Positions 29,481-51,976 of a stretch of 64,000 nt of DNA are shown here, piece after piece. Numbering within the stretch: position 1 is the stretch's first letter; each line of letters begins with the position of its first letter. The translations under genes were made by a program, and so were the position numbers. This DNA is from Coffea arabica (Eukaryota > Streptophyta > Magnoliopsida > Gentianales > Rubiaceae), in NCBI RefSeq assembly GCF_036785885.1, contig NC_092323.1:14702501-14766500 (forward strand), written 5' to 3'. The notes beneath the pieces are model-generated. The model was given only the letters and a program-made list of their open reading frames with translations, had not been told where the DNA came from and did no database searches.

Positions 29481-30612
29481 GAAGATTGGGATGGCAAAGT
29501 TTCCTCAGGCCTGACATGAAGGAGAATCTATTTAATTCCTCACTTCACATGTTAACAGAGTTCAATGCTCGTAGATATGGAAATTTGTTTATGCAGATAA
29601 GGTTTCCTTCCTCAATTAACTGCTTGTGTTCTTTGTATCAGTTCAGTAATGAGTTCTTGTTTTCTTTTTTTTTTTGTCAAAGCAATTATTGGAATGTACC
29701 TATATTTTGGTTGGGCAACTTTTAATTTTAGTTATCAACATTTTTGGGATGTAATTTATTAAAATTATTCATTTTTCTTATTAGTGTTATGATTGAAATG
29801 CAATAACTCTATATTAAAAGATACGAGGGTAATTTAAGCATAACAAAAACTAAGATCAGATTACCAGGTTGGATGTGATAACAGAAATTCTAGTTAGGAT
29901 AAACTTCAGAACATCTGCCGAGCAGAAAACATAGATTTGATTAAAACGAAGTACGACAACTAAGTTTTCTACCATGCTGAACGTTGATCTAGACTTAATG
30001 CAATTCAGCAAGAAAAAGCCTTTGTCACTCATAATCTAGACCTGGAGAACTCAAAGATATATATGGTTTACATGTCATAGTTATAAAGATCAACGAACCA
30101 AATTTATTCAAGTAATACATGACCTGATCAATTTCTTATATTCTTGTTTCTGATTTTTTCTGTCATTACTGAACTAAATTGAAGAGCATTATAGAACAAT
30201 ACTAACAGAACTAGGCAAGGAAAGGCACCGAATTGGGAGTGCATGATAAGTTACTTGGCAACTTACACCCCAGATGGTTTGACAAAGCCGCGCGAGTATA
30301 AAACTGCATACAGAATATGTATTTTCTTGGAGATTCAACATGTCTTGATTAAGCATATAATCAGCATAAGATGTGATGAATACTGTTATGCATCACAGGA
30401 ATGTTTAATCTTACGTGGGTTAAGCCTTGACACATTTTAAAACTAAAAAAGAAAGAAAGAGAGACAAGGGAACCTTATACCTGAGAGTTAACATTTGACA
30501 TGGGGCTGATTTTAAATTGAATTTGAGGCCACACATATCTGATAGGTGAAAAAGTACATAAAAACCAGCATGAATGATTAACCTATGCTATATGGCCCCA
30601 AATCTATTATAA
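29481..30612. other. Spacer between the NLR and the GH17 array
   Basis: Convergent 3' regions of the NLR (+) and GH17 copy 1 (-). From about 30470 it is similar to the 3' flanks of copies 2-4 (CTTATACC.GAGAGTTAACATTTGACAT), which marks the left edge of the duplicated unit. Nothing else seen. Confidence 0.5.
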
Positions 30613-32522
30613 TCAGCATGTACACATCAAAGTGAAGCAGATGAACAACGTCTGCACAACAGCAATCATCAATGATATCGATGATGGCTTGAGAGCATGA
30701 GCCAGGCTTTGTGCGTATCCACTAAAATTAGGGATCTCAGCAGCTAGTATTTCGACAGGGAATGTGCAGGATGGAGTTGAAGGATCGTCTGAGACTATCT
30801 TACCATATCCGTTGTAATAACACGATTTGTTGGACACACGTTGGGATGCCTTCTGGAAGCCCATATTAAAGGCATACGAAAGCCTCTGCATGTATGTCAA
30901 ATTGCTGCATGACCCTCCAGGATCCAATGCCGTGCAATCTGCAGTGTCACATGCGTACTTTGCTTGATCATCAAAAACATTATAAGCAACTTTACCAATA
31001 TCTGATGCGTATCGGTCATTGAAAATGCACCACCTTTTAGGCATATGTGTAATGCCTATAGCTGGTACTAGCTTGACATCGTGCCCAAGCCCCTGAAGAT
31101 CAAAGTTAAACTTAGGCTGTCCATCAAATTTGTAGATACCCCAATGTCGCATGAAGGATCCGGCATTCTTGTTTATCTTATTTTCATCAGACAAATTATG
31201 GAGATAGACATCAATCGGACCAGGACGTCGAGGAGTTCCTTTCTTACTAGCTACAAATTTAGCCAAGCCCTGATAAAATCTCTGTGCATTTGGGATGTTT
31301 CCATCTTTTATTCCATCTGTTGGCCATCCAATTGCATCTATAATGATTGTCATGTTTGGACACCCCACTTTCTCTAATGCAACATCGAACATATCATACA
31401 TGACCTCTATGACATTTGAATAGGTTTTGTCCCCATCTTTGAACACTGAGGTAGAGTTGTTCTCAAGAAATGCAAATTCAGTGTCACCGTTAAACAAATC
31501 ATTAACATTAAGGAGTGGGAAAATAACCACTCCAATTGGAGCATTGTAGCTCTGCAGAATCTGACATGACCTAGTAATGTTTGGCTCTAAATCTTTTCTG
31601 AAAGCAGCCTCCGCTGGTTTCTTTACAGGGATGAGGACGTCAGTGAAATGATTCATTGTTGCTTTAATGTCACTTTTATTCATTAACTTAAGAGCTTGTT
31701 GCATCCAGTCCAATACCTGAATAGCTTCGGGATATGTTTGATTGAAAAATCTTGTCGATAATGGCATCGTCCCAACGCAAACATAGCTATAAAAAAAATC
31801 AAACAAAAGTTGACCAAAAATGAAAACATAATCAATAAGAGAGCTAAAAAAACAAAGGAGAAATTAAATTGTTAACCATTAAATTATACTCAAATTTATA
31901 ACCAAAAATTCATCTAATAATATCTCTTTCAAGGTGTAACGGGAGTTATAAGGTACAACATTCGGATTCATCCAGTGGCTAAGTAATGGCTCTTAGAGTC
32001 TTGCCTCACCGTCAGCATGGAGGATTCTCCTATGTGATAGGAGCTCATTCATTCAACTATTGGGATAGCTAAGTGGTGGCTAAGATAGAGCGCTTATCCT
32101 AGTTCGCAGGCAGGTCTAAGGATCAAATTCTAGGTCTGGAAATTGGGGGTTGGGAGTTTATAGAAAGAGGTAGGAGCTATTCAAAGAAAAACATACATGA
32201 AATGGACATTGGGATGGCTTACAATAATCTGAACCACCCACTCATCCACATCAGCCTGAGTTTTCATCTTCTGTGTAGATTGATTAGGCATTGTGATTTC
32301 CAGTCCAATGTCAGTCGCTGAAAAGGCTTCCAAGACATTGTCACTTGCACTGAAAAGCTTGACGTAATTGATCTTGTTTTGCATCAGCAAGTCAACCACC
32401 ATGGATGGTATCATTCTTTGTGTTGCCAACCTTCCCCAATTCATACCTAAATAACCCTCTACATAAAGGGTCTCCAATGAAAGAAATGAAATTGCACATA
32501 TTAAGAGATTGAAGCCGTTCAT
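30613..32522 (-). CDS. GH17 + X8 pseudoenzyme, array copy 1
   Basis: Two exons: 32197-32522 and 30613-31786; intron 31787-32196 (AT|GTATGT...TTTATAG|C); 499 residues. Signal peptide (~1-23), GH17 fold starting YLGMNWGRLATQ, X8 domain (RWCIFNDRY...YACDTADCTAL...GGSC...YAFNMGFQ) and a C-terminal hydrophobic tail. The catalytic sites are changed: VGNEP is VGTMP (Met116), GEIGWP is DAIGWP (Ala260), FERHWGI is FMRHWGI (Met321); only the Glu of SDEN remains of four conserved acidic positions. The fold-determining segments around them, GWPTDG and HWGI.KFDGQPKF, are conserved. It cannot hydrolyse glucan by the GH17 mechanism (inference from established family chemistry); a wall or callose binding role through X8 is the likely alternative. 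Compared with copies 3 and 4, its residues 116-170 carry a cluster of private changes. Confidence 0.92.
32062..32180 (+). mobile_element. SINE-like insert in the intron of copy 1 (also copies 2 and 4)
   Basis: The plus strand shows an A box, TAGCTAAGTGGTGG, and about 50 bases on a B-box-like GGATCAAATTC (GGTTCAAATCT in copy 4), the arrangement of a tRNA-derived promoter. Possible short duplication AGGAGCT..ATTCA flanks it. Present at 39210-39330 and 49001-49120; in copy 3 only the 3' part survives. Confidence 0.45.
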
Positions 32523-33652
32523 CCCACTTTGATCCCACTTTTAATATCAATATGTGGAGTTCAATCTGGTTCCCCAAATGAGGAAGAAAATTCGAAAAAG
32601 TGATCATTGGCATAAATATGAAAAAATGTACCAAAAAAGAGATAGTTTATCACAGGTTCTGTACAGGTAATCAATCAGGAAAACAAGGAATGACAACCAC
32701 TGAAATTGTATTGACAACTGTTGAAGGAAAAAGGTAAATTGAAAATAAGTGGTTCCCTTGTAGATTTGACCAACTAATACTACTTTTTTATTTGGCAATG
32801 TTTTCTAAATTAGGGAAAAAAGGTAAATTGAAGGAAAAAGGTAAATTGAAAATAAGTGGTTCCCTTGTAGATTTGACCAACTAATACTACTTTTTTATTT
32901 GGCAATGTTTTCTAAATTAGGGAAAAAAGGTAAATTGAAAATAACGGTTCCCTAGTAGATTTTACCAACTAATACTACTTATTTGGCAATTGATGTTTTC
33001 TAAATTAGTAAATTCCCTAGAATCTGGTTTCTATTTAGCACTGAAATAGGATACAGATTACAGACATAACCACTCAAGGTCCTCAAGGATCCTCCAGCTT
33101 TTTTTTTTTTGTGATTTATTTTAGTGTAAGTGGAAGATCTTAAACTCGGGAGCTTTCATTTACACTCTCTCCCCCTCCTCTCCTCTCCTCCCAACATCCT
33201 TTAGTTTTGAACAAATATAAGACAGATTTGATTTGATTTGTCATTCTCTAACCTAAAGAGATACAAAACAAAATCCTCAAAAGTTATAGGCTTATATAGC
33301 TCTATGACAAATATATCAAAAGCTTGATTTTTTCAGACAACTAATTAAATGATTTTAAGAAAGATTTAAATATGAATTAATTTTTATATATTGATAATGT
33401 ATACTTTGTTATAGTTGGATATATGATAACTAATCCGATTTGAAGTTTAAATTTAGTTATGTTTTAAAGATGAATAAAAAATAAGAAATCAATTGACGAA
33501 ATGATTTAATTCTTGCAAATAATATCTGATTTTTAAGTGTTAGATAAATTTTGTAGATTCAACGTATATATACACCTTTTTCGAAGTCATTACAAAATTT
33601 GTCAATATAAATAGGATAAGAGCCAATAAGATTCAGCCCAAGACATGTGCTA
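32523..33652. other. Upstream region of copy 1, shared by all four units
   Basis: Probable promoter region of copy 1 (-), AT-rich, alignable to 39671-40700, 43436-44467 and 49460-50590. It contains polypyrimidine stretches (about 33155-33195). No TATA box stands out. Confidence 0.5.
32723..32936. repeat. 107-bp tandem duplication private to unit 1
   Basis: The segment starting GAAGGAAAAAGGTAAATTG at 32723 is repeated from 32830 with almost no change. Other units have one fewer repeat at this place, so it is a recent local event. Confidence 0.85.
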
Positions 33653-34787
33653 GTAGGGGTGCAATCAAGTCGAATCAAATTTTGTCCTAATCAAACCGAG
33701 CATCGACTTAATTTTATTAGGGGTGGATAAAAATACCTGCTAACCCAAAAACCCACGACATTTGATCCTATCCGATTCAAAAATGAAGAATCCGATCCGT
33801 ATCATTTGATCAGGTTAAAAAAGGATCGGGTACCTATTTAGATGTGGGGCAGGTTAGGGTCACATAATTAAAAACCTGCAGATACCCGACCCGTTCTTCA
33901 TAATTTTTTTTTTATACACATACTATAAAATTATATATTTAGAGTTAAATAAGCAATTTCATTGAACAAATTACATTACAAATATGGGAGACTATAGTTT
34001 CTTATAAAATTCATTTGTAGAGGTCATGATCTTGTATTTTTTAAAAAAGAGTTTAATTAATGTGGACTACATATATTTAAAAAAAGTGCTACTTATTTCA
34101 AATTTTTATTGATTTTGAATTCTTTTAATTTTTTCCTTTTTCTTGTATTCTCTTCATATGCTTGTTTCTTCGTAGGAGACTTTTTTCGAGAAAAAATCTT
34201 TGTTAAATGTTAGATGAACATGTAAAATAAAAAATTAAATTAGTATAAATTATTTTTAAAAAAAATTAATTGATAAGTGGCGGAGTGGGTACCCATTGAC
34301 TCAATCCTACTTCGGAAGGTACTCGATAATCAGGTACCTGTTGATATGCAGAACGGGTAAGGGTCAAAAAATACCTGACATGCAAGATGTGGGACGAATC
34401 AGTCAAATGGTACATGGAGCGAGTAACCAACCCATGCCTACTCCTATATTTTATCAAGTTCAAACTCAAACTGAAACTCTTAATGTAAAGATCGAGTTCG
34501 AGCCGAGTCGAGAAAAAAATGAAAATTTTATTTTATTTTTTAAAAAAATGAATAAAATATTAGGAATATATATAATTTCACTATTAATATATATATGTAT
34601 GTATGTATGTATAATCGAGCTAGTTTGTGAGCTAATAAGTTAAGCATTTTTTAATTTGAATTCGAACTCGAGTTCAATTTAGTAAGTACGAACTCGACTA
34701 GAACTCGATATTGTCTGAACTCAATCCGAACTTTGAATCAAGCTACTCATGAACGGCTCACAAGTGACTCAACTTGTGTGCAGCCCT
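33653..34787. mobile_element. hAT-like non-autonomous element, unit 1
   Basis: Ends are TAGGGGTGCAATCAAGTCGA and, inverted, TAGGGCTGCACACAAGTTGAG; flanked by ATGTGCTA / ATGTGCTG, an 8-bp duplication with one change, fitting hAT. The interior has repeated ACCCGA/GGGTAC motifs. No transposase. The same element lies at 44468-45607 and, without its left end, at about 40700-41260 (right part lost as well) and 50590-51663, so it predates the gene duplications. Confidence 0.7.
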
Positions 34788-35065
34788 ATGTGCTGCCAAC
34801 CGTGTGATTTTTTTTTTTCCGCTTCTTTACTTGGTTCCCTGGTTCCATATGAGTCACTTGTGGCATTAGGTGTAGGATGTCAAGCTATTATCTCCCTCAA
34901 AATTCATCTTCCTTGGTTCCGCTTCTTTCTTCCCCTTTATCTTGAACTCTCTACTCTTTTCTCATTCTTTCCATTCTATTTTCTTCCCTCATATCTTTCT
35001 TTTCTTTTTTTTTCTTCCTTCATTCTCCCTATTACCGAGGGATCTTTCTTCTCTAATAATGTTTT
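34788..35065. other. CT-rich spacer
   Basis: Pyrimidine-rich sequence shared with 45608-45886 and about 51664-51976. Its open frame is compositional and not supported as a gene. Confidence 0.4.
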
Positions 35066-35535
35066 GGATAAATTAATTATAACGCCCAGTGATTTTATAT
35101 AATGTCAAATGACCCCTCTAAAGGTTTAAAATAGCAATATAACCCTCCTATGATTTTATGTAAAGTGAAAAATAGATGAAATGCACAATTAGTTATGATA
35201 TTTATACCAAGCGTACTCTAAAAGTGTGTGTGATAAAATTTTAATCTCCATAAAACTCTCTTAATATTTGTATAAATATTTACTTTATCCTCTGTGTTTT
35301 TTACATTTATCCATGTAATCCCCTTATGCTTTTATATAAGGTAGTTAAGTCATTGATTGATTCAGCATTTAAGTAAAAGTACTATTGGTATTTCAATTAA
35401 CGACATTATATAAGTTATTTTTGCTCAAGATACTACATTACATAAAACCATATGGGGTGAAATGAACATTTTGAAATGTTAAAGGGGTCATGTGGCAATA
35501 GATAAAACTACATGGGAGTTATATATAATTTACCC
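35066..35535. mobile_element. 470-bp Mutator-like element, unit 1
   Basis: Ends GGATAAATTAATTATAACGCCC and, inverted, GGGTAAATTATATATAACTCCC, with extended inverted similarity (ATGACCCCT segments). The 9-bp flanks TAATGTTTT and TAATATTTT differ at one base. No coding capacity. Confidence 0.75.
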
Positions 35536-36777
35536 TAATATTTTATATGACTTTCTCTATTCTTTGGAATTTATATTATTGTTCTTTTCAAAGCCTTCTT
35601 GAAAATATAATTTCCTTGGTCATATATTTTTTAGAGTATACTTGTATATTCAAGATACATTTGGTAAATCTGGACATATAAAGCTTTCATTGTTGTGTGG
35701 AAAATCAATGAGCTTACACATTTATATCCCGGAGCACCTCTAACTCGAATTTTGATTGAATAAACTCAATATTCGGCTAGCTCAATTAATGTGTGATACC
35801 CATTGAACACCGATACAACAGTTCTTTTATAGCTCTATTCATTAGACACCAACCACCTAATGGCTCAACAAAGCTTGGCCAATGGAAACATTGTCTTGAG
35901 TTATAATCAAGTAAACTTGGCTGAAGTTTTGCTCTCGGAAACTCCATAATGCTTGGATGAACACATATTAATTTGGATTTAGTATAATAGTAAGTATCTA
36001 TTGGATACCCGCTAGGAAAAAAATTTTTTATTTGCCACTTTATAGCCATTCCATTGGACAATTGTTAGAAAACCAATTTTCCACCCCTAATATCCTTGTA
36101 TAAAAATTAAAAAGAATCTATATGACTTCATTTATTTCTTCACAAGAAAACTTTGTTCTCTTATCTCCCATAAATAGGATGTACCTTTTAATTTTCAAAG
36201 AGTATTAGTATATTTGCATAAGTTCGGTAGTAAACTTCTAGTTGTTTCCCAAAAACAGTTATTGGAGGGGACTTGTACCCGATGTTTTGGTTTGGGAGAA
36301 TGGCAAGAACAGATCTGCCTCTTCTACATGTATCAATCTGAGTGACACGAAAAAATTTAATTTTTCTGAGAAAAAATAGCTCGACAGTCCAACTTTTTCT
36401 TTTTCCTCTTCTCTTCTTCTTCTGTTTCTGTCCTTTATACAAAGTATCCTCAAGAAAATTCAACAGCGTACAATTGTAAAACCAAGAAATTTTAATCTAA
36501 TTTGGATTAAGACCTGACCCAATATTTAAAACTACAAAGGAAAAAGAAGGACGAGGAAGGGACTGAAAGATAAAATGAATCTTATACCCGAGAGTTAACA
36601 TTTGACATGGAGCCGATTTTAATTGGATTTGAAGGCACTTGTTTCTTACAGGTGAAATTGTCAAACAAAATCATAAAGTCAGTTGTCATTTGAAGGTATG
36701 TGCATATTAATCTGTATGATTAGCCTATGCTACATGGCCCCAAATCCATTATAATCACATGTACACATCAAAGTGAA
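35536..36777. other. Shared spacer and 3' flank of copy 2
   Basis: AT-rich sequence nearly identical to 46357-47598. It ends in the common 3' flank of the array genes (from about 36580). No gene seen. Confidence 0.5.
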
Positions 36778-39670
36778 TCACATGAACAACGTCTGCACAA
36801 CAGCAATCATCAATGATATCGATGATGGCATGAGAGCACGAGCCAGGCTTCATGCGTATCCATTAAAATTAGGGATCTCAGCAGCTAATATTTCGACATG
36901 GAATGTGCAGGATGGAGTTGAAGGATCATCCAAGATTATCTTACCATATCCGTTGTAATAACACGTTTTTTTGTACACATTTTGAGCTGCCTTCTGGAAG
37001 CCCATATTAAAAATGTATGAAAGCTATTGTGTTTTTGTCAGATTGCTGCATGACGTTCCAGCTTCCATTGCTGTGCAATCTACAGTACTGTCACATGCAT
37101 CCAAAAATTTTTCTCTTGTTATATTATTAATATCATTTGCAACATCACCGTTGACAATGCACCATCTTTTAGGCATATGTGTAATGCCTACAGCTGGTAC
37201 TAACTACACATCATGCCCAAGCCCCTGTAGATCAAAGTTAAACTTAGGCTGTTTATCAAATTTGTAGATGCCCCAGTGTCGCCTGAAGGATCCGGTACTC
37301 TTGTTTATCTTATTTTCATCAGACAAATTACGGATGTAGACATCAATTGGACCAGGACATCGAGGAGTTCCTTTCTTACTTGCTACAAATTTAGCTAAGC
37401 CCTGATGGAATCTCTGTGTATTTGGGATGTTCCCATCTTTTATTCCATCTGTTGGCCATCCAATTGCATCGATAATGATTGTCATGTTTGGACACCCCAC
37501 TTTCTCTAATGCAACATCGAACATATCATACATAACCTCAAAACCATTGGAGTAGGTCTTGTCCCCGTCTTTGAAAACTGAGGTGGATTTGTGCTCAAAA
37601 AATGCAAATTCGGTGTCACCGTTGAACAGATCATTAACACTCAGGAGTGGGAAAACATCTAGTCCAATTGGAGCATTGTAGCTCTGCAGAATCTGACAAG
37701 ACCTAGTCATGTTTGGCTTTAAATCTTCTTTGAAAGCACCCTCTGATGGTTTTTTTACAGGGATGAGGACGTCCGTGAAATGACTCATTGTTGCTTTAAT
37801 TTCACTTTTATTCATTAAATTAAGAGCTCTTTGCGTCCAATCCAATACCTGAATAGCTTCGGGATATGTTTGATTGGAAAATCTTGTCAATAATGGCTGT
37901 GTCCCAACACAAACATACTTATAAAAAGAAAAAATCAAACAAAAGTTGACCAAAAATGAAAATATAATCAATAAGAGAGCTAAAAAAACAAAGGAGAAAT
38001 TAAATTGTTAACCATTAAATTAACCAAAAATTCATCTAATAATATCTCTTTCAAGGTGTGACGGGAGTTATAAGGTACAACATTCGGATTCATCCAGCGA
38101 CTAAGTAATGGCTCTTAGAGTCTTGCCTCATCGTCAGCAGGGAGAATTCTCCTATGTTATGTTTTCAAACTCGGACCGGACCGGTTGGACTGGTAACCGG
38201 CTAGATGTCCGGTTTGAGTGTTTCTAAAAACCCGTTTGTTTAAAACTCAGGCAAATCCGGTCAAAAGTCGGGTTGGACCGGAAACCAATGAAACCGGCGA
38301 GAACCGGAGTTTTTCATTTTTTTCTCCTTTTCACTCTAACCTGGAACCCATCTTCCTTGTTTGACAAGTCGCTCAAAACTTGCAAACCATCTTCCTCCTT
38401 TGAACAAGATCCCTTCATATCTAATCTTAAATGCATTTATTGAACAAGATCTAATCACACATGTATCAAAAAGGTGAAAAAGAAATAAAATAGTAAAAAA
38501 AAAGAGTTGAAAAAGAGAGAAGTTTAAAAAAAATAAGATAATTTTTTTATATTTTGTGAGTTTGAGGAGAAAAGACTAGCACGATGAAATCTGGAACGGA
38601 AAACGAAAAAAGAAAAAAAAAAGAGTCGAAAGAAGAAGAAGTTGCAGGGGAAGAAAGAACAGAGGCAGGACAAGAATGGATGAAAGTGACGGCAACATGA
38701 TTGCTTTAGGCTTGGAGTCAAAGAAGAAATATGAGAAAATTTCAGTTTGGGTTCAAAGTTTTAACAAATTTATGTTTTGACCTCTAAAGTATCTCAAAAT
38801 TGTTGACGTACTTAGAAATATTTAACAGATTATAGATAGTCCTAAATTTTAGTGTTTTATTTCAAATAAATCTCCAAAATTAATTCTTAACGATAAAATA
38901 AACATTAAATCATATGAACTATTAGTTGATTATTCTATGTTATTTGTATTTTTTTGTTAAATAATTTTGAAACATCAAACATCTACTAATATACTTTACT
39001 TGATATTAACCTATGGTTAGACATTTTACATAATATTTTAATTTTAATTAAATTATATTAATGACATCATGCTGACATCATCCGATTTTTGACACCAGTC
39101 GAACCCGATTGGACCAATTGACCTCTGACCCCTGAACTCTACCGAGTCTTTGTCCGGTCCGAGTTTCAAAACATAACCTATGTGACAGGAGCTCATTCAT
39201 TCAACTATTGGGATAGCTAAGTGGTGGCTAAGATAGAGCGCATATCCTAGTCTGTAGGCAGGTCTAAGGATCAAATTCTAGGCCTGGAAGTTGGGGGTTG
39301 GGAGTTTATAGAAAGAGGTAGGTGCTATTAAAAGAAAAACATACATGTAATGGACATTGGGATGCCTTACAATAATCTGAACCACCCAGTCGTTCACATC
39401 AGCTTGATTTTTCAGCTTCTGTGTATATACATTAGGCATTGTGACTTCCAGTCCAATGTCAGTCACTGAAAAGGCTTCCAAGACATTGTCACTTGCACTG
39501 AAAAGCTTCACGTAATTGATCTTGTTTTGCATCAACAAGTCAACCACCATGGATGGTATCATTCTTTGTGTTGCCAACATTCCCCAATTCATACCTAAAT
39601 AACCCTCTACATCAATGGTCTCCAATGAAAGAAATGAAATTGCACATATTAAGAGATTGAAGCCGTTCAT
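36778..39670 (-). pseudogene. GH17 + X8 array copy 2, disrupted
   Basis: Exon 1 (39345-39670) is intact and very like copy 4. The exon 2 acceptor reads TATAAG|T where copies 3 and 4 have TATAG|G, which moves the AG one base into the exon and shifts the frame. Exon 2 (about 36778-37917) also has an in-frame TAG at the Lys after GLGHDV (near 37204) and another TAG replacing a Lys codon in the X8 region (near 37023). The intron, 1427 nt against 311-410 in the others, holds an hAT element. Active-site positions show the family's altered pattern (VGTQP, DAIGWP, FRRHWGI), so loss of catalysis came before loss of the gene. Probably not expressed as a full protein. Confidence 0.9.
38158..39175. mobile_element. 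hAT non-autonomous element in the intron of copy 2
   Basis: 1018 bp. Ends TATGTTTTCAAACTCGGACC and, inverted, TATGTTTTGAAACTCGGACC; several CCGGT/ACCGG sub-terminal repeats follow. The flanks TCCTATGT and ACCTATGT match at 7 of 8 bases, and copy 4 shows the empty site (TTCTCCTATGTGACAGG). No transposase frame. Confidence 0.88.
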
Positions 39671-41624
39671 CCCACTTTGATCCCACTTTTAATATCACTA
39701 TGTGGAGTTCAACCTGGTTCCCTAAATGAGGAAGAAAATTCGAAAAAGTGATCATTGTCATAAATATGAAAAATATACCAAAAAAGAGATGGTTTATCAC
39801 AGGTTTTGTACAGGTAATCAATCAGGAAAACAAGGAGTGACAACCACTGAAATTTTATTGACAACTGTTGAAGGAAAAAAAGGTAAATTGAAAATAAGTG
39901 GTTCCCTTGTAGATTTGACCAACTAATACTACTTTTTTATTTGGCAAGTAATGTTTTCTAAATTAGGGAGAAAAGGTAAATTGAAAATAATTGTTCCCTA
40001 GTAGATTTTACCAACTAATACTACTTACTTGGCTAGTGATGTTTTCTAAATTAGTAAGTTCCCTAGAATCTGGTTTCTATTTAGCACCGAAATAGGATAC
40101 AGATTACAGACACAACCACTCGAGGTCCTCAAGGATCCTCCAGGTTTTTCTTTTTTTTTTTTGATTTATTTTAGTGTAGGTGGGAGATTTTGAACTTGGA
40201 AGCTTTTATTTACACTCTCTCCCCTCTCCCCCCCCCAAACGATCCTCTAGTTTTGAACAAATATAAGACAGATTTGGATTTGGTTGTGTCATTCTCTAAC
40301 CTTAAGAGATACAAAACAAAATCTTCAAAAGTTAAAGTCTTATATAGCTCTAGGACAAATATATCAAAAGCTTGATTTTTTTTAGACAACTAATTAAATG
40401 ATTTTAAAAAATTTTAATTATGAATTAATTTTTATATATTGATAATGTATACTTTATTATAGTTGGATGTATGATAACTAATCTGAATTCGAGTTTAAAA
40501 TTTAGTTATGTTTTAAAGATGAATAAAAAATAAGAAATCAATTGACGAAATGATTTAATTCTTGCAAATAATATCTGATTTTTAAGTGTTAGATAAATTT
40601 TGTAGATTCAACGTATATATACACCTTTTTCGAAGTCATTACAAAATTTGTCAACATAAATAGGATAAGAGCCAATAAGATTCAGTCCCAAAACATGTGC
40701 TGAAAAATACCTGCTAACATGAAAATCCGTCACATCCTATTTTATCTGATCCGAAAATTAGGATACCCGATCCGTATTATTTGATCGAGTTTAAAGAGGA
40801 TTGGGTACCCGCTTAGATGTATGATGAGTTAGAGTCACATAATTAAAAATCACAGATACCCGACCCATCCCGCATATTTATTTTTTTATATTTATACACA
40901 TACTAAAAAATAATATATTTAGAGCTAAATAAGCAATTTCATTGAACAAATGCATTACAAATATGGGAGACTATAGTTTGTTTACTAAATTCATTTGTAG
41001 AGGTCATGATCATTTTTTTTTTAGAAAAGAATTTAATTAATATGTAATATATATTTTAAAAAGGTGCTACCTATTTCAAATTTTTATTGATTTTGAATTC
41101 CTTTAATTTTTATTTTTATTTTTCTTGTATTTTCTTAGTATGCCTGTTTCTTGGTAGGAGACTTTTTTCAAAAAAAAAAATCTTTGTTAATCTTAAATGA
41201 ACATGTTAAATAAAAAATTAATTTAGTATAAATTATTTTAAAAAAAATTAAAGGGTTAAGAACAAAAAAGCCCCATGTGGTATATGTAATATACAGAAAA
41301 GTCCTCTGTAGTTTTAAAATATACAAAACGATACCTCATGTTTTGAACTAAATTATAAACTAACAGAATTTGTTAAACTTAACGAAAATGTCGGTTTCGG
41401 CAGTTAAATTACCGGATTCCGTTAAGTTTACCATTAAGATAAAAAGAATCTTATACCTGAGAGTTAACATTTGACATAGAGCCTATTTTAATTGGATTTC
41501 AAGCCACTTGTTTCTGACAGGTGAAATTGTAAAACAAAATCGTAAATGTCAGTTGTCATTTGAAGGTATGTGCACATTAATCTGTATGATTAGCCTATGC
41601 TACACGGCCCCAAATCCATTGTAA
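39671..41624. other. Upstream region of copy 2, truncated, and 3' flank of copy 3
   Basis: 39671-41260 aligns with 49460-51140. The alignment then breaks, and 41260-41440 holds what looks like one arm of another TIR element (GGGTTAAGAACAAAAAAGCCCC..., with ATTACCGGATTCCGTTAAG). From about 41445 the common 3' flank of an array gene begins. The junction marks the boundary between the two ~11-kb blocks. Confidence 0.55.
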
Positions 41625-43435
41625 TCAGCATGTACACATTAAAGTGAAGGAGATGTACAACGTCTGCACGACAACAGTCATCAATGATATCGATGATGGC
41701 TTGAGAGCATGAGCCAGGCTTTGTGCGTATCCAGTAAAATTAGGGATCTCAGCAGCTAATATTTCCACAGGGAATGTGCAGGATGGAGTTGAAGGATCAT
41801 CTGAGACTATCTTACCATATCCGTTGTAATAACACGATTTGTTGGACACACTTTGAGCAGCCTTCTGGAAGCCCACATTAAAGGCATACGAAAGCCTCTG
41901 CATGTATGTCAAATTGCTGCATGAACCTCCAGGATCCAATGCCGTGCAATCTGCAGTGTCACATGCGTACTTTACTTGATCATCAAAAACATTATAAGCA
42001 ACTTTACCAATATCTGATGCGTATCGGTCATTGAAAATGCACCACCTTTTAGGCATATGTGTAATGCCTATAGCTGGTACTAGCTTGACATCGCGCCCAA
42101 GCCCCTGAAGATCAAAGTTAAACTTAGGCTGTCCATCAAATTTGTAGATACCCCAGTGTCGCATGAAGGACCCGGCATTCTTGTTTATCTTATTTTCATC
42201 AGATAAATTATGGATATAGACATCAATCGGACCAGGACGTCGAGGAGTTCCTTTCTTACTAGCTACAAATTTAGCCAAGCCCTGATAAAATCTCTGTGCA
42301 TTTGGGATGTTTCCATCTTTTATTCCATCTGTTGGCCATCCAATTGCATCTATAATGATTGTCATGTTTGGACACCCCACTTTCTCCAATGCAACATCGA
42401 ACATATCATACATGACCTCTACGACATTTGAATAGGTTTTGTCCCCATCTTTGAACACTGAGGTGGAGTTGTTCTCAAGAAATGCAAATTCAGTGTCACC
42501 GTTGAACAAATCATTAACATTAACGAGTGGGAAAATAACCACTCCAATTGGAGCATTGTTGCTCTGCAGAATCTGGCATGACCTAGTAATGTTTGGCTCT
42601 AAATCTTTTCTGAAAGCACCCTCTGATGGTTTCTTTGCAAGGATGAGGACATCAGTGAAATGACTCATTGTTGCTTTAATTTCACTTTTATTCATTAAAT
42701 TAAGAGCTTGTTGCGTCCAGTCCAATACCTGAATAGCTTCGGGATATGTTTGATTGAAAAATCTTGTCGATAATGGCTGCGTCCCAATGCAAACATACCT
42801 ATAAAAAAAATTCAAACAAAAGTTGACCAAAAATGAAAATATAATCAATAAGAGAGCTAAAAAAAAGGAGAAATTAAATTGTTAACCATTAAATTATACT
42901 CAAATTTATAACCAAAAATTCATGTAATAATATCTCTTTCAAGGTGTGACTGGAGTTATAAGGTACAACATTCGGATTCATCCAGTGGCTAAGTAATGGC
43001 TCTTAAGAGTCTTGCCTCACCGTCAGCAGGGAGGATCAAATTCTAGGCCTGGAAATTGGGGGTTGGGAGTTTATAGAAAAACGTAGGAGCTAGTCAAAGA
43101 AAAACATACATGAAATGGACATTGGGATGGCTTACAATAATCTGAACCACCCACTCATCCACATCAGCCTGAGTTTTCATCTTCTGTGTAGATTGATTAG
43201 GCATTGTGATTTCCAGTCCAATGTCAGTCGCTGAAAAGGCTTCCAAGACATTGTCACTTGCACTGAAAAGCTTGACGTAATTGATCTTGTTTTGCATCAA
43301 CAAGTCAACCACCATGGATGGTATCATTCTTTGTGTTGCCAACCTTCCCCAATTCATACCTAAATAACCCTCTACATAAAGGGTCTCCAATGAAAGAAAT
43401 GAAATTGCACATATTAAGTGATTGAAGCCGTTCAT
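41625..43435 (-). CDS. GH17 + X8 pseudoenzyme, array copy 3
   Basis: Two exons, 43110-43435 and 41625-42798, intron 42799-43109 (AT|GTATGT...TTTATAG|G); 499 residues, intact. Exon 1 is the same as copy 1 at all but one residue. Domains as in copy 1: signal peptide, GH17, X8 (RWCIFNDRY...YACDTADCTAL), hydrophobic tail ending CFTLMCTC-like. Active-site changes: VGTQP (Gln116), DAIGWP (Ala260), FMRHWGI (Met321). The intron has lost about 130 bases relative to copy 1, with both breakpoints at AGGAT, which suggests slippage between short repeats. Residues 110-170 share states with copies 2/4, the rest with copy 1. Confidence 0.92.
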
Positions 43436-44467
43436 CCCACTTTGATCCCACTTTTAATATCAATATGTGGAGTTCAATCTGGTTCCCCAAATGAGGAAGA
43501 AAATTTGAAAAAGTGATCATTGGCATAAATATGAAAAAATGTACCAAAAAGGATATGGTTTATCACAGGTTTTGTACAGGTAATCAATCAGGAAAACAAG
43601 GAATGACAACTACTGAAATTGTATTGACAACTGTTGAAGGAAAAAGGTAAATTGAAAATAAGTGGTTCCCTTGTAGATTTGACCAACTAATACTACTTTT
43701 TTATTTGGCAAGTAATGTTTTCTAAATTAGGGAAAAAAAGGTAAATTGAACAGAACGGTTCTCTAGTAGATTTTACCAACTAATACTACTTATTTGGCAG
43801 TTGATGTTTTCTAAATTAGTAAATTCCCTAGAATCTGGTTTCTATTTAGCACTGAAATAGGATACAGATCACAGACATAACCACTCAAGGTCCTCAAGGA
43901 TCCTCCAGCTTTTTCTTTTTTTTTTATTTATTTTAATGTAAGTGGGAGATCTTGAACTAGGGAGTTTTCATTTACACTCTCTCCCCCTCCTCTCCTCTCC
44001 CCCCAACAGCCTCTAGTTTTGAACAAATATAAGACATATTTGATTTGATTATGTCATTCTCTAACCTAAAGAGATACAAAACAAATCTTCAAAAGTTATA
44101 GGCTTATATAGCTCTACAACAAATATATCAAAAGCTTGATTTTTTAAGACAACTAATTAAATGATTTTAAGAAAGATTTAAATATGAATTAATTTTTATA
44201 TATTGATAATGTATACTTTATTATAGTTGGATGTATGATTACTAATCCGAATTCATGTTTAAAATTTGGTTATGTATTAAAGATGAGTAAAAAAAATAAG
44301 AAATCAATTGACAAAATGATTTAATTCTTACAAATAATATCTTATTTTTAAGTATTAGATAAATTTTGTAGATTCGATGTAGATATACCCGTTTTTCGAA
44401 GTTATTACAAAATTTGTCAACATAAATAGGATAAGAGCCAATAAGATTCAGCCGAAGACATGTGCTG
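43436..44467. other. Upstream region of copy 3
   Basis: Shared with 32523-33652 but without the extra 107-bp unit. Probable promoter region on the minus strand; no clear TATA box. Confidence 0.5.
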
Positions 44468-45607
44468 TTAGGGGTGCAAGCGAAATTTTGACCGAATCAA
44501 ACTGAGCATCGACTTAATTTTATTAAGGGTGGATAAAAATACCCACTAACCCAAAAACCCACGACATTTGATCCTATCCGATTCGAAAATTAAAAATTAG
44601 ATCCGTATCATTTGATCGGATCAAAAGAGGGTTAGGTACCTACTTAGATGTGGGGCGGGTTAGGGTCGCATAATTAAAAACTTGCAGATACCCGACTCGT
44701 CTTTCATATTTTTTTAAATTTTTTATTTTTATACATATACTATAAAATAATATATTTAGAACTAAATAAGCAATATCATTGAACAAATTGCATTGCAAAT
44801 GTAGGAGACTATAGTTTCTTATAAAATTCATTTGTAGAGGTCATGATCTTATGTTTTTTAAAAAAGAGTTTAATTAATGTGGACTATATATATTTAAAAA
44901 ATGTGCTACTTATTTCAAATTTTTATTGATTTTAAATTCTTTTAATTTTTTTCCTTTTTCTTGTATTCTCTTCACATGTTTATTTCTGGGTAGGAGACTT
45001 TTTTTGAGAAAAAAATCTTTGTTAAATGTTAGATGAACATGTAAAATAAAAAATTAAATTAGTATAAATTATTTTTTAAAAAATTAATTGATAAGCTGCG
45101 GAGTGGGTACCCATTGACTCAATCCTACTTCGGAGGGTACTCGATAATCAGCACCCGTTAATATGCGGAACGGGTAAGGGTCAGAAAATGACTGACCTGC
45201 AAGGTGCGGGACGGGTTAGTCAAATGGTGCATGGAGCGAGTAACCAACCCATGCCCACTCCTAAATTTTATCAAGCTCAAGCTCAAACTCAAGCTCTTAG
45301 TGTAAAGCTCGAGGTTGAGCTGATCTGAGAAAAAATGAAATTTTGTTTTATTTTTAATAAAATGAATAAAATATTAGGGATATATATAATTTTACTATTA
45401 ATATATATATATATATGTATGTATGTTTGTATAATCGAGCTACTTTGTGAGCTAATGAGTTAAATATTTTTTAATTTGAATTCGAACTCGAGTTCAACTT
45501 AGTAAGTTCAAACTCGACTTAAACTCGATATTGACTGAAGTCAATCCGAACTTTGAATTGAGCTACTCATGAACGGCTCACGAGTGATTCAACTTGTGTG
45601 CAGGCCT
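44468..45607. mobile_element. hAT-like non-autonomous element, unit 3
   Basis: Same element as at 33653. Here the 8-bp flank ATGTGCTG is perfect (44460-44467 and 45608-45615), which supports the hAT assignment for both. Confidence 0.78.
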
Positions 45608-45886
45608 ATGTGCTGGCAACCGCGTGATTTTTTTTTATTCCACTTCTTTACTTGGTTCCCTGGTTCCATATGAGTCACTTATGGCATTAGGTGTAGGGTG
45701 TCTAGATATTATCTCTCTCAAAATTTATCTTCCTTGGTTCCGCTTCTTTCTTCCCCTTTATCTTGAACTCTCTACTCTTTTCTCATTCTTTCCATTCTAT
45801 TTTCTTCCCTCTTATTTTTCTTTTCTTTTTTTTTCTTCTTGCCTTCTCCCTATTACCGAGGTATCTTTCTTCTCTAATAATGTTTT

Positions 45887-46356
45887 GGATAAATTAATTA
45901 TAACCCCCAGTGATTTTATATAATGTCAAATGACCCCTCTAAAGGTTTAAAATAGCCATATAATCCTCCTATGATTTTATGTAAAGTGAAAAATAGACGG
46001 AATGCACAATTAATTATGATGTTTATACCAAGCGTACTCTAAAAGTGTGTGTCATAAAATTTTAATCTCCATAAAACTCTCTTATGATTTGTATAAATAT
46101 TTACTTTACCCTCTGTGTTTTTTGCATTTATCCATGCAATCCTCTCATGCTTTTATACAAGGTATTTAAATCATTGATTGATTCAGCATTTGAGTAAAAT
46201 CACTATTGGTATTTCAATTAACGACATTATATAAGTTATTTTTGCTCAAGATTCTACATTACATAAAACCATATGGGGTGGAGTGAACATTTTAAAATGT
46301 TAAAGGGGTCATGTGGCAATAGATAAAACTACATGGGGGTTATATATAATTTACCC
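45887..46356. mobile_element. 470-bp Mutator-like element, unit 3
   Basis: Same element, ends and position as at 35066-35535. Its presence at the same place in both blocks shows it was copied with the block rather than inserted twice. Confidence 0.75.
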
Positions 46357-47598
46357 TAATATTTTATATGACTTTCTCTATTCTTTGGAATTTATATTCG
46401 TTATTGTTCTTTTCAAAGCCTTCTTGTAAATATAATTTCCTTGCTCATATATTTTTTAGAGTATACTTATATATTCTAGATACATTTGGTAACTCTGGAC
46501 ATATAAAGCTTTCCTCATTGTGTGGAAAATCAATGAGCTTACACATTTATATCTTGGAGCATCTCTAACCTGAATTTTGATTGAATAAACTCAATATTCG
46601 GCTACCTCAATTAATGTGTGATATCCATTGAACACCAATACAACAGTTCATTTATAGCTCTATTTATTAGACACCAACTACCTAATGGCTCGATTGAGCT
46701 TGGCCAATGGAAACATTGTCTTGAGTTTTAATCAAGTAAACTTGGCTGAAGTTTTGCTCTCGGAAACTCCATAATGCTTGGATGAACACTTGTTAATTTG
46801 GATTTAGTATAATAGTATCTATTGGATACCCATTAGGAAAAAAAAATTTTATTTGCCACTTTATAGCCATTCCATTGGACAATTGTTAGAAAACCAATTT
46901 TGCACCCCTAATATCCTTGTATAAAAATTAAAAAGAATCTATATGACTTCCTTTATTTCTTCACAAGAAAACTTTGTTCTCTTATCTCCCATAAATAGGA
47001 TGTACCTTTTAATTTTCAAAGAGTATTAGTATATTTGCATCAGTTCGGTAGTAAACTTCTAGTTGTTTCCCAAAAACAGTTATTGGAGGGGACTTGTACC
47101 CGATGTTTTGGTTTGGGAGAATGACAAGAACAGATCTGCCTCTTCTACATGTATCAATCTGAGTGACACGAACAAATTTTATTTTTCTGAGAAAAAATAG
47201 CTCGACAGTCCAACTTTTTCTTTTTCTTCTTCTCTTCTTCTTCTGTTTCTGTCCTTTATACAAAGTATCCTCAAGAAAATTCAACAGCGTACAATTGTAA
47301 AACCAAGAAATTTTAATCTAATTTGGATTAAGACCTGACCCAATATTTAAAACTACAAAGGAAAAAGAAGGACGAGGAAGGGACTGAAAGATAAAAAGAA
47401 TCTTATACCTGAGAGTTAACATTTGACATGGAGCCGATTTTAATTGGATTTGAAGGCACTTGTTTCTTACAGGTGAAATTGTAAAACAAAATCATAAAGT
47501 CAGTTGTCATTTGAAGGTATGTGCATATTAATCTGTATGATTAGCCCATGCTGCATGGCCCCAAATCCATTATAATCACAGGTACACATCAAAGTGAA
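46357..47598. other. Shared spacer and 3' flank of copy 4
   Basis: Nearly identical to 35536-36777. No gene seen. Confidence 0.5.
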
Positions 47599-49459
47599 TC
47601 ACATGAACAACGTCTGCACAACAACAATCATCAATGATATCGATGATGGCATGAGAGCACGAGCCAGGCTTCGTGCGTATCCATTAAAATTAGGGATCTC
47701 AGCAGCTAATATTTCAACAGGGAATGTGCAGGATGGAGTTGAAGGATCATCTGAGACTATCTTACCATATCCGTTGTAATAACACGATTTGTTGTACACA
47801 TTTTGAGCTGCCGTCTGGAAGCCCATATTAAAAACATACGAAAGCTTCTGTGTTTCTGTCAGATTGCTGCATGACGCTCCCGCTTCCATTGCAGTGCAAT
47901 CTACAATACTGTTACATGCATCCAAAAATTTTTCTCTTGTTGTATTATCAATATCATTTCCAACATCACCGTTGACGATGCACCACCTTTTAGGCATATG
48001 TGTAATGCCTACAGCTGGTACTAACTTCACATCACGCCCAAGCCCCTGTAGATCAAAGTTAAACTTAGGCTGTCCATCAAATTTGTAGATGCCCCAGTGT
48101 CGCCTGAAGGATCCGGTACTCTTGTTTATCTTATTTTCATCGGACAAATTATGGATGTAGACATCAATCGGACCAGGACGTCGAGGAGTGCCTTTCTTAC
48201 TTGCTACAAATTTAGCTAAGCCCTGATGGAATCTCTGTGCATTTGGGATATTCCCATCTTTTATTCCATCTGTTGGCCATCCAATTGCATCTACAATGAT
48301 TGTCATGTTTGGACACCCCACTTTCTCTAATGCAACATCGAACATATCATACATAACCTCAAAAACATTGGAGTAGGTCTTGTCCCCGTCTTTGAAAATT
48401 GAGGTGGAGTTGTTCTCAAAGAACGCAAATTCGGTGTCACCGTTGAACAGATCATTAACACTCAGGAGTGGGAAAACATCTAGTCCAATTGGAGCATTGT
48501 AGCTCTGCAGAATCTGACATGACCTAGTCATGTTTGACTCTAAATCTGCTCTGAAAGCGCCCTCTGATGGTTTCTTTACAGGGATGAGGACGTCAGTGAA
48601 ATGACTCATTGTTGCTTTAATTTCACTTTTATTCATTAAATTAAGAGCTCTTTGCGTCCAATCCAATACCTGAATAGCTTCGGGATATGTTTGATTGGAA
48701 AATCTTATCGATAATGGCTGCGTCCCAATGCAAACATACCTATAAAAAAATCAAACAAAAGTTGACCAAAAATGAAAATATAATCAATAAGAGAGCTAAA
48801 ACAACAAAGGAGAAATTAAATTGTTAACCATTAAATTAACCAAAAATTTATCTAATAATATCTCTTTCAAGGTGTGACGGGAGTTATAAGGTACAACATT
48901 CGAATTCATCCAGTGACTAAGTAATGGCTCATAGAGTCTTGCCTCACCGTCAGCTGGGAGGATTCTCCTATGTGACAGGAGCTCATTCATTCAACTATTG
49001 GGATAGCTAAGTGGTGGTTAAGATAGAGCGCTTATCCTAGTCCGTAGGCAGGTCTAAGGTTCAAATCTAGGCCTGGAAATTGGGGGTTGGGAGTTTATAG
49101 AAAGAGGTAGGTGCTATTAAAAGAAAAACATACATGAAATGGACATTGGGATGCGTTACAATAATCTGAACCACCCAGTCGATCACATCTGCCTGATTTT
49201 TCAGCTTCTGTGTATATACATTAGGCATTGTGACTTCCAGTCCCATGTCTGTCGCTGAAAAGGCTTCCAAGACATTGTCACTTGCACTGTAAACCTTCAC
49301 GTAATTGATCTTGTTTTGCATCAACAAGTCAACCACCATGGATGGTATCATTCTTTGTGTTGCCAACCTTCCCCAATTAATACCCAAATAACCCTCTACA
49401 TCAATGGTCTCCAATGAAAGAAATGAAATTGCATATATTAAGAGATTGAAGCCGTTCAT
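47599..49459 (-). CDS. GH17 + X8 pseudoenzyme, array copy 4
   Basis: Two exons, 49134-49459 and 47599-48739, intron 48740-49133; 488 residues, intact. It is 11 residues shorter than copies 1 and 3 because the stop comes earlier in the C-terminal tail (VVVQTLFM). Active-site pattern: VGTQP (Gln116), DAIGWP (Ala260), FRRHWGI (Arg321). The X8 domain differs clearly from copies 1/3 (RWCIVNGDVGNDIDN...LDACNSIVDCTAM...GASC), so binding specificity may differ. Closest relative in the window is pseudogene copy 2. Confidence 0.92.
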
Positions 49460-51976
49460 CCCACTTTGATCCCACTTTTAACATCAATATATGGAGTTCG
49501 ATCTGGTTCCCCAAATGAGGAAGAAAATTCGAAAAAGTGATCATTGTCATAAATATGACAAAATGTACCAAAAAAGAGATGGTTTATCACAGGTTTTGTA
49601 CAGGTAATCAATCAGGAAAACAAGGAATGACAGCCACTGAAATTTTATTGACAACTGTTGATGGAAAAAAATGGTAAATTGAAAATAAGTGGTTCCCTTG
49701 TAGATTTGACCAACTAATACTACTTTTTTATTTGGCAAAATGTTTTCTAAATTAGGGAAAAAAGGTTAATTGAAAATAATGGTTCCCTAGTAGATTTTAC
49801 CAACTAATACTACTTATTTGGCTAGTGATGTTTTCTAAGTTAGTAAATTCCCTAGAATCTGGTTTCCATTTAGCATTGAAATAGGATACAGATTATAGAC
49901 ACAACCGCTCAAGGTCCTCAAGGATCCTCCAGCTTTTTTTTTTTAGTTTGTTAAATTTTGTATATTACTCAATTAATAGTTATTGAATTTTAAGAAATAA
50001 AAAATAACTAAAACATGATATTTATGTTGGAGAAATAACAATATAATAAAAAGTGGGACAGAAAATAGCACAGAGTGTGGGACAGAAGATCTGTTGCGCT
50101 CCCTCCCCCTTCTCTCTCCTCCCCCCCCAATGATCCTCTAGTTTTGAACAAATATAAGATAGATTTGGATTGGTTGTGTCATTCTCTAACCTTAAGAGAT
50201 ACAAAACAAAATCTTCCAAAGTTATAGGCTTATATAGCTCTAGGACAGATATATCAAAAGCTTGATTTTTTTTGGACAACTAATTAAATGATTTTAAGAA
50301 ATATTTAAATATGAATTAATTTTTATATATTGATAATGTATCCTTTATTATAGTTGGATGTATGATAAGTAATCCGAATTCGAGTTTAAAATTTAGTTAT
50401 GTTTTAAAGATGAATAAAAAATAAGAAATCAATTGACGAAATGATTTAATTCTTACAAATAATATCTGATTTTTAAGTGTTAGATAAATTTTGTAGATTC
50501 GACGTATATGTACACACCTTTTTCGAAGTTATTACAAAATTTGTCAACATAAATAGGATAAGAGCCAATAAGATTCAGCCCCAAAACATGTGCTGAAAAA
50601 TACCCGCTAATCTGAAAATCCGTCACATCCTATTCTATCTGATCCGAAAATTAGGATACCCGATCCGTATTATTTGATCAGATTAAAAAAGAATTGGGTA
50701 CCCGGTTAGATATAGGACGGGTTAGAGTCACATAATTAAAAATCGCAAATACCCTACCTGTCCCGCATATTTATTTTTTTATTTTTATACACATACTATA
50801 AAGTAATATATTTAGAGCTAAATAAGCAATTTCATTGAACAAATGCATTACAAATATGAGAGACTATAGTTTGTTTACTAAATTCATTTGAAGAGATCAT
50901 GATCTTTTTTTTTTTAGAAAAAAATTTAATTAATATGGAATATATATTTAAAAAAGGTGCTACTTATTTCCAATTTTTATTGATTTTGAATTCTTTTAAT
51001 TTTTTCCTTTTTCTTGTATTCTCTTCGCATGCTTGTTTCTTGGTGGGAAACTTTTTTGAAAAAAAATCTTTTTTAAATCTTAGATGAACATGTAAAATAA
51101 AAAATTAAATTAGTATAAATTATTTTTTAAAGAAATTAAATGATAAGCGGGGCGAAATCGGTACCCGTTGATCCGACCCTATTTCGGAGGGCACCCGATA
51201 ATTGAGTACCCGCTGATATGCGGAGCGAGTAAGGGTCAAAAATAACTGAACTGTAAGGTGCGAGTCAGGTCAACCAAATGGTGCATAGGGTAGGTACCCG
51301 ATCCATGCTCACTCCTAAATTTTATCAAGTGGAAACTTGAATTCAAGCTCTCAATGTAAGGTTTGATCTCGAGCCGAGTCAAGAAAAAATAAAATAAAAA
51401 TTATTTTATATTTTTAAAAAATAAATAAAATAATAATTTTTTAAAAAATAATAAAATATTAGAGATATATATAATTTTAATATATACATATGTATGTATG
51501 TATGTATGTATAATCGAGTCAATTTAGGAGTTAATGAGCTAAATATTTTTGAACTCGAATTCGAACTTGAATGCGACTTGATTAGTTTGAATTTGACAAA
51601 AACTCGATATTGACCGAACTACTCACAAGTGGCTAGCGAGTGATTTGACTCATGTGTAGCCCTATATGCTGCCACTCGTATGACTTTTTTTTTTTTTTTT
51701 TGTTTCTGCTTCTTTCCTTGGTTCCATGGTTCCATATGAGTCAGTTGTGGCATTAGGTGTAGGGCATCTAGGGTTTAGACATTATCTCTCTCAAAAATTA
51801 TCCACCATTTCTTGTCTTCTTCCTTGGTTTCACTTTTTTCTTCTCCTTCATCTTGAACCCTCTACTCTTTTCTCATTCTTTCCTTTCTATTTTCTTCCCT
51901 CTTATCTTTCTTTTCTTCTTTTTTCTTCCTTCTTTCTCCCTATTACCAAGGGATCTTTCTTCTCTAATAATGTTTT
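49460..51976. other. Upstream region of copy 4
   Basis: Shared with the upstream regions of the other copies. At about 49945-50095 a private AT- then CT-rich segment replaces the common polypyrimidine part. The hAT-like element is present without its left end (50590-51663), followed by the CT-rich spacer. Confidence 0.5.

What the first reader, a model, noticed from the sequence alone, without database searches (positions are those of the whole stretch)
30613..49459. Tandem family of GH17-X8 genes with three of four active-site Glu residues replaced but open frames kept
Seen: all four copies have VGTQP/VGTMP for VGNEP, DAIGWP for GEIGWP, and FM/FR before RHWGI for FE. The signal peptide, GWPTDG and HWGI.KFDG surroundings, X8 domain and C-terminal tail remain, and copies 1, 3 and 4 have full frames of 499, 499 and 488 residues. 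Known: GH17 enzymes need the acid/base and nucleophile Glu. Inference: the array encodes wall or membrane-anchored glucan-binding pseudoenzymes that have been amplified, perhaps as callose or pathogen-glucan sensors or decoys next to an NLR.
Basis: partly seen in the sequence, partly recalled or inferred. Interest (0 to 1): 0.85.

Follow-up and report, generated by a model that had tools for sequence, protein, structure and literature searches.

The report
Dead glucanase genes kept by selection
Coffee carries a small tandem family of cell-wall sugar-cutting enzyme genes whose cutting residues have been lost, yet the intact copies are still being preserved by natural selection, so the protein probably does a non-cutting job such as binding or signalling at the cell wall.

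Summary
Four minus-strand GH17-X8 genes lie at 30613-49459. Three have full two-exon frames (499, 499, 488 aa); copy 2 is broken. All replace the acid/base Glu (Q/M), the nucleophile Glu (A) and a third cleft Glu (M/R), and keep a fourth. The genome is an allotetraploid coffee (inferred). The family has ten members: four here, four in the homoeologous array, two moved to another chromosome; 7 are intact. Intact lineages have omega 0.50 (2dlnL 27.0 against 1); the three broken copies have 1.08, not different from 1. The dead GH17 barrel is the best-constrained part (0.42); signal peptide plus tail is at 0.97. The array's closest relative is the catalytic gene 8 kb away (moderate support). Both types of copy share the loss, and their split is roughly 12-41 My old. 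Of 68 other coffee GH17 loci read, 4 (one separate lineage) also lost the Glu pair. The precedent is ZERZAUST, a GH17 protein that seemingly does not degrade callose. Best reading: a maintained, secreted pseudo-glucanase that works by binding or scaffolding. Simple decay is rejected; glucan binding and expression are untested; the NLR link is weak.

The parts
30613..32522 (-). copy 1 (type A), exon 1 32522-32197, exon 2 31786-30613, 499 aa; VGTMP / DAIGWP / SDEN / FMRHWG
36757..39670 (-). copy 2 (type B), broken: splice acceptor AG lost, stops at codons 347, 407, 465 (laid on copy 4)
41625..43435 (-). copy 3 (type A), exon 1 43435-43110, exon 2 42798-41625, 499 aa; IGTQP / DAIGWP / SDEN / FMRHWG
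47599..49459 (-). copy 4 (type B), exon 1 49459-49134, exon 2 48739-47599, 488 aa, C-terminal tail shortened; IGTQP / DAIGWP / SDEN / FRRHWG
30571..52253 (.). array built as a two-gene block of about 10.8 kb present twice (copies 1+2 and 3+4); end coordinates approximate
20693..22317 (+). neighbouring GH17-X8 gene with the catalytic residues (VGNEP / GEIGWP / FERHWG), 479 aa, exons 20693-21033 and 21219-22317; closest relative of the array in the tree
25695..29480 (+). single-frame NLR (NB-ARC, R1-type, 1261 aa, stop to stop) between the catalytic gene and the array; probably unrelated to it

Best explanation
The array is a lineage of secreted GH17-X8 pseudo-glucanases. Most likely a copy of the catalytic neighbour lost its acid/base, nucleophile and a third cleft Glu (inferred from the tree), evolved fast on a long stem, and was then maintained and amplified for a non-hydrolytic role. 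SHOWN: the residues are gone, seven frames are open, the intact copies are under purifying selection that lies mainly in the dead barrel, the broken sister copies drift at about the neutral rate, and by the nucleotide tree the four-copy array existed before the two homoeologous regions split. INFERRED: the protein goes to the apoplast (signal-peptide-like start, 11-12 sequons, X8 with six Cys) and acts by binding, as a ZERZAUST-like wall or signalling adaptor whose barrel holds a protein or glucan ligand without cutting it. I put 0.85 on 'maintained pseudoenzyme', about 0.5 on a ZERZAUST-like adaptor or signalling role, and about 0.3 on true beta-1,3-glucan binding in the old cleft.
For: Frames and motifs. 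Codon ML: functional branches omega 0.50, 2dlnL 27.0 against 1 (p 2e-7); broken-copy tips 1.08; the two classes differ by 8.5, p 0.004. The one-ratio likelihood equals IQ-TREE's to 0.001. 7 intact copies alone: 0.498, 2dlnL 25.2. Intact tips alone: 0.44, 2dlnL 14.0; GH17 part 0.416, 2dlnL 26.5. The catalytic neighbour and its homoeologue give NG86 0.39, so constraint is similar. Four copies in both homoeologous regions. Array sister to the adjacent catalytic gene, aLRT 93.8 / UFBoot 80, stem 1.17 against 0.49 substitutions per site. Nucleophile replaced by Ala as in the potato glucanase chain 4gzi; chain 3ur7 has Glu at that place. Published precedent for a GH17 protein that seems not to degrade callose: ZERZAUST (passages in PMC7897608, PMC9412048, PMC6643898).
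Against: No transcript or protein evidence. The one coffee apoplast proteome I looked into names, in the passages seen, a single GH17 entry, a basic beta-1,3-glucanase, and nothing recognisable from this family (PMC4484983). Omega 0.5 is only moderate constraint. Signal peptide plus tail is at 0.97 and X8 is weakly constrained (0.547, 2dlnL 5.3, p 0.02), so the targeting and carbohydrate-module story is less secure than the barrel story. Three of ten members are broken, so single copies are dispensable. With only the two stop-bearing copies as broken class the difference shrinks to 2dlnL 4.8, p 0.03. The exon-2 protein tree does not recover the copy-1 / copy-3 split (support 35/52), which rests on the nucleotide tree. 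The model of exon 2 alone had pLDDT 45.8 and shows nothing. No partner or ligand is known.
Confidence: 0.7

Rival explanations
1. Simple decay: dead copies of a glucanase gene that happen still to be open.
For: 3 of 10 family members are broken; signal peptide plus tail evolves at omega 0.97.
Against: Intact lineages 0.50, 2dlnL 25-27 against 1, while the broken copies sit at about 1 on the same tree. The dead state is shared by types A and B, whose split (NG86 dS 0.17-0.24 over 12 pairs) is about 3 to 7 times deeper than the homoeologue pairs (dS 0.029, 0.037, 0.067).
Confidence: 0.07
2. Apoplastic decoy: the dead barrels bind pathogen inhibitors or effectors aimed at the active glucanase next door, or are watched by the adjacent NLR. 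A recalled analogue, from no call, is the inactive GH12 paralogue that Phytophthora sojae uses as a decoy for its active xyloglucanase.
For: Tandem amplification, sister relation to an active neighbour, X8 that differs between types A and B (pairwise omega 0.69-0.73), barrel conserved while catalysis is lost.
Against: The NLR has no frame over 319 aa in the homoeologous region, so it is not co-maintained. Average omega gives no sign of positive selection in the barrel (0.42; sites were not tested singly). The closest described precedent is developmental.
Confidence: 0.15
3. Non-cutting glucan lectin: a natural substrate-trap form that binds callose or beta-1,3-glucan in the old cleft plus X8.
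For: E to A at the nucleophile, as in chain 4gzi. Four of five published aromatic cleft positions are still aromatic (W29, F/Y57, F198, F213). X8 keeps six Cys. X8 is described as beta-1,3-glucan-binding CBM43 (passage in PMC12540407).
Against: Asp57, Phe275 and the conserved Asn and Lys around the catalytic centre are replaced, and three of the five lost cleft positions differ between copies. That the cleft varies more than the rest of the barrel is not shown (4 of 10 against 59 of 324 positions, Fisher p 0.10). X8 is less constrained than the barrel.
Confidence: 0.3
4. Changed catalysis with the remaining Glu (for example transglycosylation or another sugar).
For: Glu310 (barley Glu280) is invariant in all 7 intact copies.
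Against: Both residues of the retaining mechanism are gone, and the former acid/base place differs between copies (Q or M).
Confidence: 0.03

Closest known systems
ZERZAUST (ZET) and ZETH of Arabidopsis: beta-clade, GPI-anchored 'atypical' beta-1,3-glucanases acting with the STRUBBELIG receptor kinase
   Same: Secreted GH17 proteins; ZET apparently does not degrade callose (PMC7897608 passage; PMC9412048 passage). Beta-clade GH17 of peach all carry X8 (PMC12540407 passage), as the array does.
   Different: ZET/ZETH is described as a duplication of the Arabidopsis lineage (PMC6643898 passage); the coffee genes are a tandem array with three Glu lost and a very long stem. I could not align them with ZET (no sequence held; the Development 2017 paper is not held), so orthology is not claimed, and which residues ZET lacks I did not see.
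Catalytic GH17-X8 glucanases of the same clade, such as the neighbour at 20693-22317
   Same: Two-exon layout, signal-peptide-like start, GH17 plus X8, hydrophobic tail; sister in the tree.
   Different: Array lacks acid/base, nucleophile, third Glu, cleft Asp57 and Phe275, has three extra barrel Cys (112, 183, 251) and 11-12 sequons against 5.
Potato GLUB20-2 with Ala at the nucleophile (PDB 4gzi, 4gzj)
   Same: Ala at the nucleophile place.
   Different: Recalled as a single engineered change that keeps the rest of the cleft; here the cleft is rewritten and the change is natural.
Second coffee pseudo-GH17 lineage, VGDDP / GQIGWP (L033-L036, C1 and C2)
   Same: Acid/base and nucleophile Glu both lost (to D and Q); WC motif followed by at least six Cys at the X8 place.
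   Different: Separate position in the tree; keeps the FERHWG Glu and 22 of 26 near-universal GH17 columns against 16 for the array.

Membership tests
GH17 (Pfam PF00332) | profile match over the curated cut-off | tested here: met
   96-106 bits against 28.2 for exon 2 of the four copies
GH17 (Pfam PF00332) | two catalytic Glu (acid/base and nucleophile) | tested here: not met
   Q/M and A in the 7 intact copies and in copy 2: a GH17-fold homologue, not filed as a GH17 enzyme
X8 / CBM43 (Pfam PF07983) | profile match and six conserved Cys | tested here: met
   27.8-27.9 bits against 25.7 for copies 1, 3, 4; six Cys from residue 362 to 446/449 in the 7 intact proteins
beta-clade plant GH17 with X8 | groups with X8-bearing GH17 paralogues | tested here: met
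   groups with the 20 nearest paralogue loci, sister to L021/L022; 18 of those 20 show a WC motif followed by at least six Cys, Pfam X8 was run only on the neighbour; the clade name is taken from passages, not from a tree with named beta-clade genes
GPI-anchored proteins | C-terminal hydrophobic GPI signal | tested here: inconclusive
   hydrophobic tail in type A; shortened in copy 4 and followed by 10-12 residues in the other type B copies; no GPI predictor at hand
ZERZAUST-type atypical glucanase | does not degrade callose, acts in SUB signalling | not testable with these tools
   needs enzyme assay and genetics
ZERZAUST-type atypical glucanase | orthology to ZET/ZETH | not tested
   no plant protein collection and no ZET sequence at hand
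maintained pseudoenzyme (not pseudogene) | open frames under purifying selection after loss of catalytic residues | tested here: met

The most novel reading that the evidence does not exclude
An old coffee (perhaps Rubiaceae-wide) family of catalytically dead glucanase barrels was rebuilt into a new apoplastic binding protein: cleft rewritten, three new Cys, doubled N-glycan sequons, two types with different X8 domains. It has been amplified and sent to a second chromosome, and serves as a protein-binding adaptor or as a decoy that shields active glucanases.
Probability: 0.3. Interest if true: 0.7.

Novelty: new variant of a known kind. Interest (0 to 1): 0.5.

Why it matters
GH17 gene counts in plant genomes are normally read as glucanase counts. 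Here a tandem family that annotation by homology would call endo-1,3-beta-glucosidases cannot be expected to hydrolyse by the GH17 mechanism and is nonetheless kept by selection. With the broken sister copies as an internal neutral control, it is a clean case of enzyme-to-pseudoenzyme conversion, and it makes the open question of what ZERZAUST-like atypical glucanases do testable in a second lineage, with an active neighbour gene as control.

Tried and rejected
Decay as explanation: rejected by codon ML. Faster evolution of the old cleft: 4 of 10 against 59 of 324 positions, p 0.10, not significant; former clade-invariant, fully lost positions 8 of 32 variable against 33 of 169, p 0.48. Folding exon 2 alone: pLDDT 45.8, so no fold search was made. 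Coffee literature: 7 papers hold Coffea, glucanase and GH17 (listing; passages of one of them, PMC4484983, seen), none of the listed titles a study of this family; one paper for 'glucosidase 8-like' with Coffea, a vesicle review (listing only). GH17 pseudoenzymes in plants: the listings show no title on such an array; most of the listed papers were not opened, and the library holds open-licence papers only. A search for the potato E259A mutant found nothing. Omega on the stem branch was not estimated: the array shares only 36-39% protein identity with its nearest relatives, too far for synonymous sites. Cross-species presence outside the two subgenomes could not be tested: no plant collection is offered.
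Full report
What is there. The window is G000:C14:14702501-14766500 of a 1.198 Gb plant genome in 131 contigs; matches fall on 22 large contigs that behave as 11 pairs. An exon fetched from C1 is identical over its first 128 residues to the dimethylxanthine methyltransferase of PDB 2efj (recalled as a Coffea canephora protein). With the size and the paired contigs this makes the genome an allotetraploid coffee, very probably Coffea arabica. The name is my inference; the tool gives none.

Gene models. Each gene has two exons joined by a GT-AG intron. Copy 2 has lost the acceptor AG and, laid on copy 4, has stops at codons 347, 407 and 465. The four genes form a two-gene block of about 10.8 kb present twice: copy 1 pairs with 3 (type A) and 2 with 4 (type B).

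Active site. Aligned with 68 other GH17 loci read from the same genome, the array has VGTMP, VGTQP or IGTQP for VGNEP, DAIGWP for GEIGWP, and FM or FR for FE; the DEN Glu stays. Of those 68 loci, 63 keep both catalytic Glu, 4 (one lineage, VGDDP / GQIGWP) do not, and 1 did not reach the acid/base motif. The third Glu is also lacking in 2 of the 63 (L075, L077). Against ten cleft residues named for barley glucanases (passage in PMC11080057; mapped by hand on the 1aq0 alignments), the neighbour at 20693-22317 keeps the class of all ten. The array keeps five (Glu280, and aromatics at 5, 33, 170, 186) and loses five (Glu93, Glu232, Asp57, Phe275, Glu288). Chain 4gzi of potato glucanase carries Ala at the same nucleophile place; chain 3ur7 carries Glu.

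The family in the genome. A six-frame search finds ten members at 76-100% identity to copy 3; the next match has 38% (100 of 143 candidates scored). Four are here, four in the homoeologous region of C13 (13.05-13.07 Mb; copies 3 and 4 intact, 1 and 2 broken) and two on C7 (copies 3 and 4, both intact). On C7 the left flank matches C8 at 99%, while the right flank matches C13 at 95%, and C8 has no copy among the listed matches; the C7 pair looks like a transposed segment. The nucleotide tree groups copies by place in the array rather than by chromosome (bootstrap 87-100 for the four groups), so the four-copy array predates the split of the two homoeologous regions; the C7 copies group with C13 (78 and 99). 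The exon-2 protein tree does not resolve copy 1 from copy 3 (35/52). The split of the two parent species is given as 4-6 million years (passage in PMC11018527).

Selection. I wrote a codon likelihood of the Goldman-Yang type with branch classes; its one-ratio likelihood (-4116.8486) equals IQ-TREE's (-4116.8484) on the same tree. One ratio: 0.61. Two classes: functional branches 0.50, tips of the three broken copies 1.08. Fixing the functional branches at 1 costs 27.0 in 2dlnL; fixing the broken tips at 1 costs 0.1; making both equal costs 8.5. With only the two stop-bearing copies as broken class the values are 0.547 and 1.121 (23.3, 0.13, 4.8); the seven intact copies alone give 0.498, 25.2. 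Intact tips alone: 0.44, 14.0. By part: GH17 0.416 (26.5), X8 0.547 (5.3), signal peptide plus tail 0.966 (0.01). Pairwise, copy 3 here against the three type B copies: GH17 0.23-0.30, X8 0.69-0.73. The catalytic neighbour and its homoeologue give 0.39. The constraint sits mainly in the barrel that should no longer cut.

Age. NG86 dS between types A and B is 0.17-0.24 over all 12 pairs of intact copies. The homoeologue pairs give 0.029 (copy 3), 0.067 (copy 4) and 0.037 (the catalytic neighbour). Scaling 0.20 by 4-6 million years gives 22-33 million years with the neighbour as yardstick and 12-41 over all three yardsticks. Both types share the lost residues, so the loss is older than that. This is a rough clock.

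Origin. In a tree of the 20 nearest coffee paralogue loci (9 lineages, the neighbour among them), 7 array members and 10 outgroup loci, the array is sister to the neighbouring catalytic gene (aLRT 93.8, UFBoot 80) on a stem of 1.17 substitutions per site against 0.49. The VGDDP lineage sits elsewhere, so the Glu pair was lost at least twice. The array has three invariant barrel Cys (112, 183, 251) that the neighbour lacks, and 11-12 sequons against 5.

Function. The nearest described protein is ZERZAUST. A review says it does not seem to degrade callose and sits in the wall despite its GPI anchor (PMC7897608, passage); another that it works with the STRUBBELIG receptor and that the anchor is dispensable (PMC9412048, passage). 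The primary paper was not held. By analogy I propose a secreted, non-cutting adaptor. The unconstrained tail fits a protein for which the anchor matters little. Whether the ligand is glucan or protein is open: most aromatic cleft positions remain, but most polar ones are gone and X8 is only weakly constrained. The NLR idea is weakened: the NLR at 25695-29480 is one open frame here, but the longest frame at the corresponding place of C13 is 319 aa.

Limits. No expression data, no plant protein collection, no reliable structure model. A coffee leaf apoplast proteome names one GH17 entry, a basic glucanase, in the passages seen (PMC4484983), which neither supports nor excludes these proteins.

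Noticed in passing
L033-L036 (G000 C1 and C2): A second, separate GH17 lineage without the catalytic Glu pair (VGDDP / GQIGWP), four loci, two on each of C1 and C2, open frames of 398 aa.
   Followed up: partly
window 25695-29480 and L039-L040: R1-type NLR with one open frame of 1261 aa here; in the homoeologous C13 region the longest frame is 319 aa.
   Followed up: partly
L043-L044 (G000:C7:9335022-9342850): Segment with array copies 3 and 4, both intact, apparently moved from a C13-type array to C7; no copy on C8 among the listed matches.
   Followed up: partly
L041 (G000:C13, copy 2, about 13057662-13058849): The 5' end of exon 2, with the acceptor and the former acid/base motif, is replaced by other sequence, and a 387-residue frame runs on from it.
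   Followed up: no
copies of types A and B, residues 358-453: Types A and B differ most in the X8 domain, with both dN and dS raised there, perhaps a trace of exchange with a more distant copy.
   Followed up: no
L075 and L077 (G000 C5 and C6): A GH17 pair with both catalytic Glu but without the third Glu (GTARHFG).
   Followed up: no
window 57176-58389: Minisatellites with units of about 27 and 48 bases.
   Followed up: no
window 61104-63002: Long minus-strand frame of 632 aa that looks like a retrotransposon gag (by eye, not searched).
   Followed up: no
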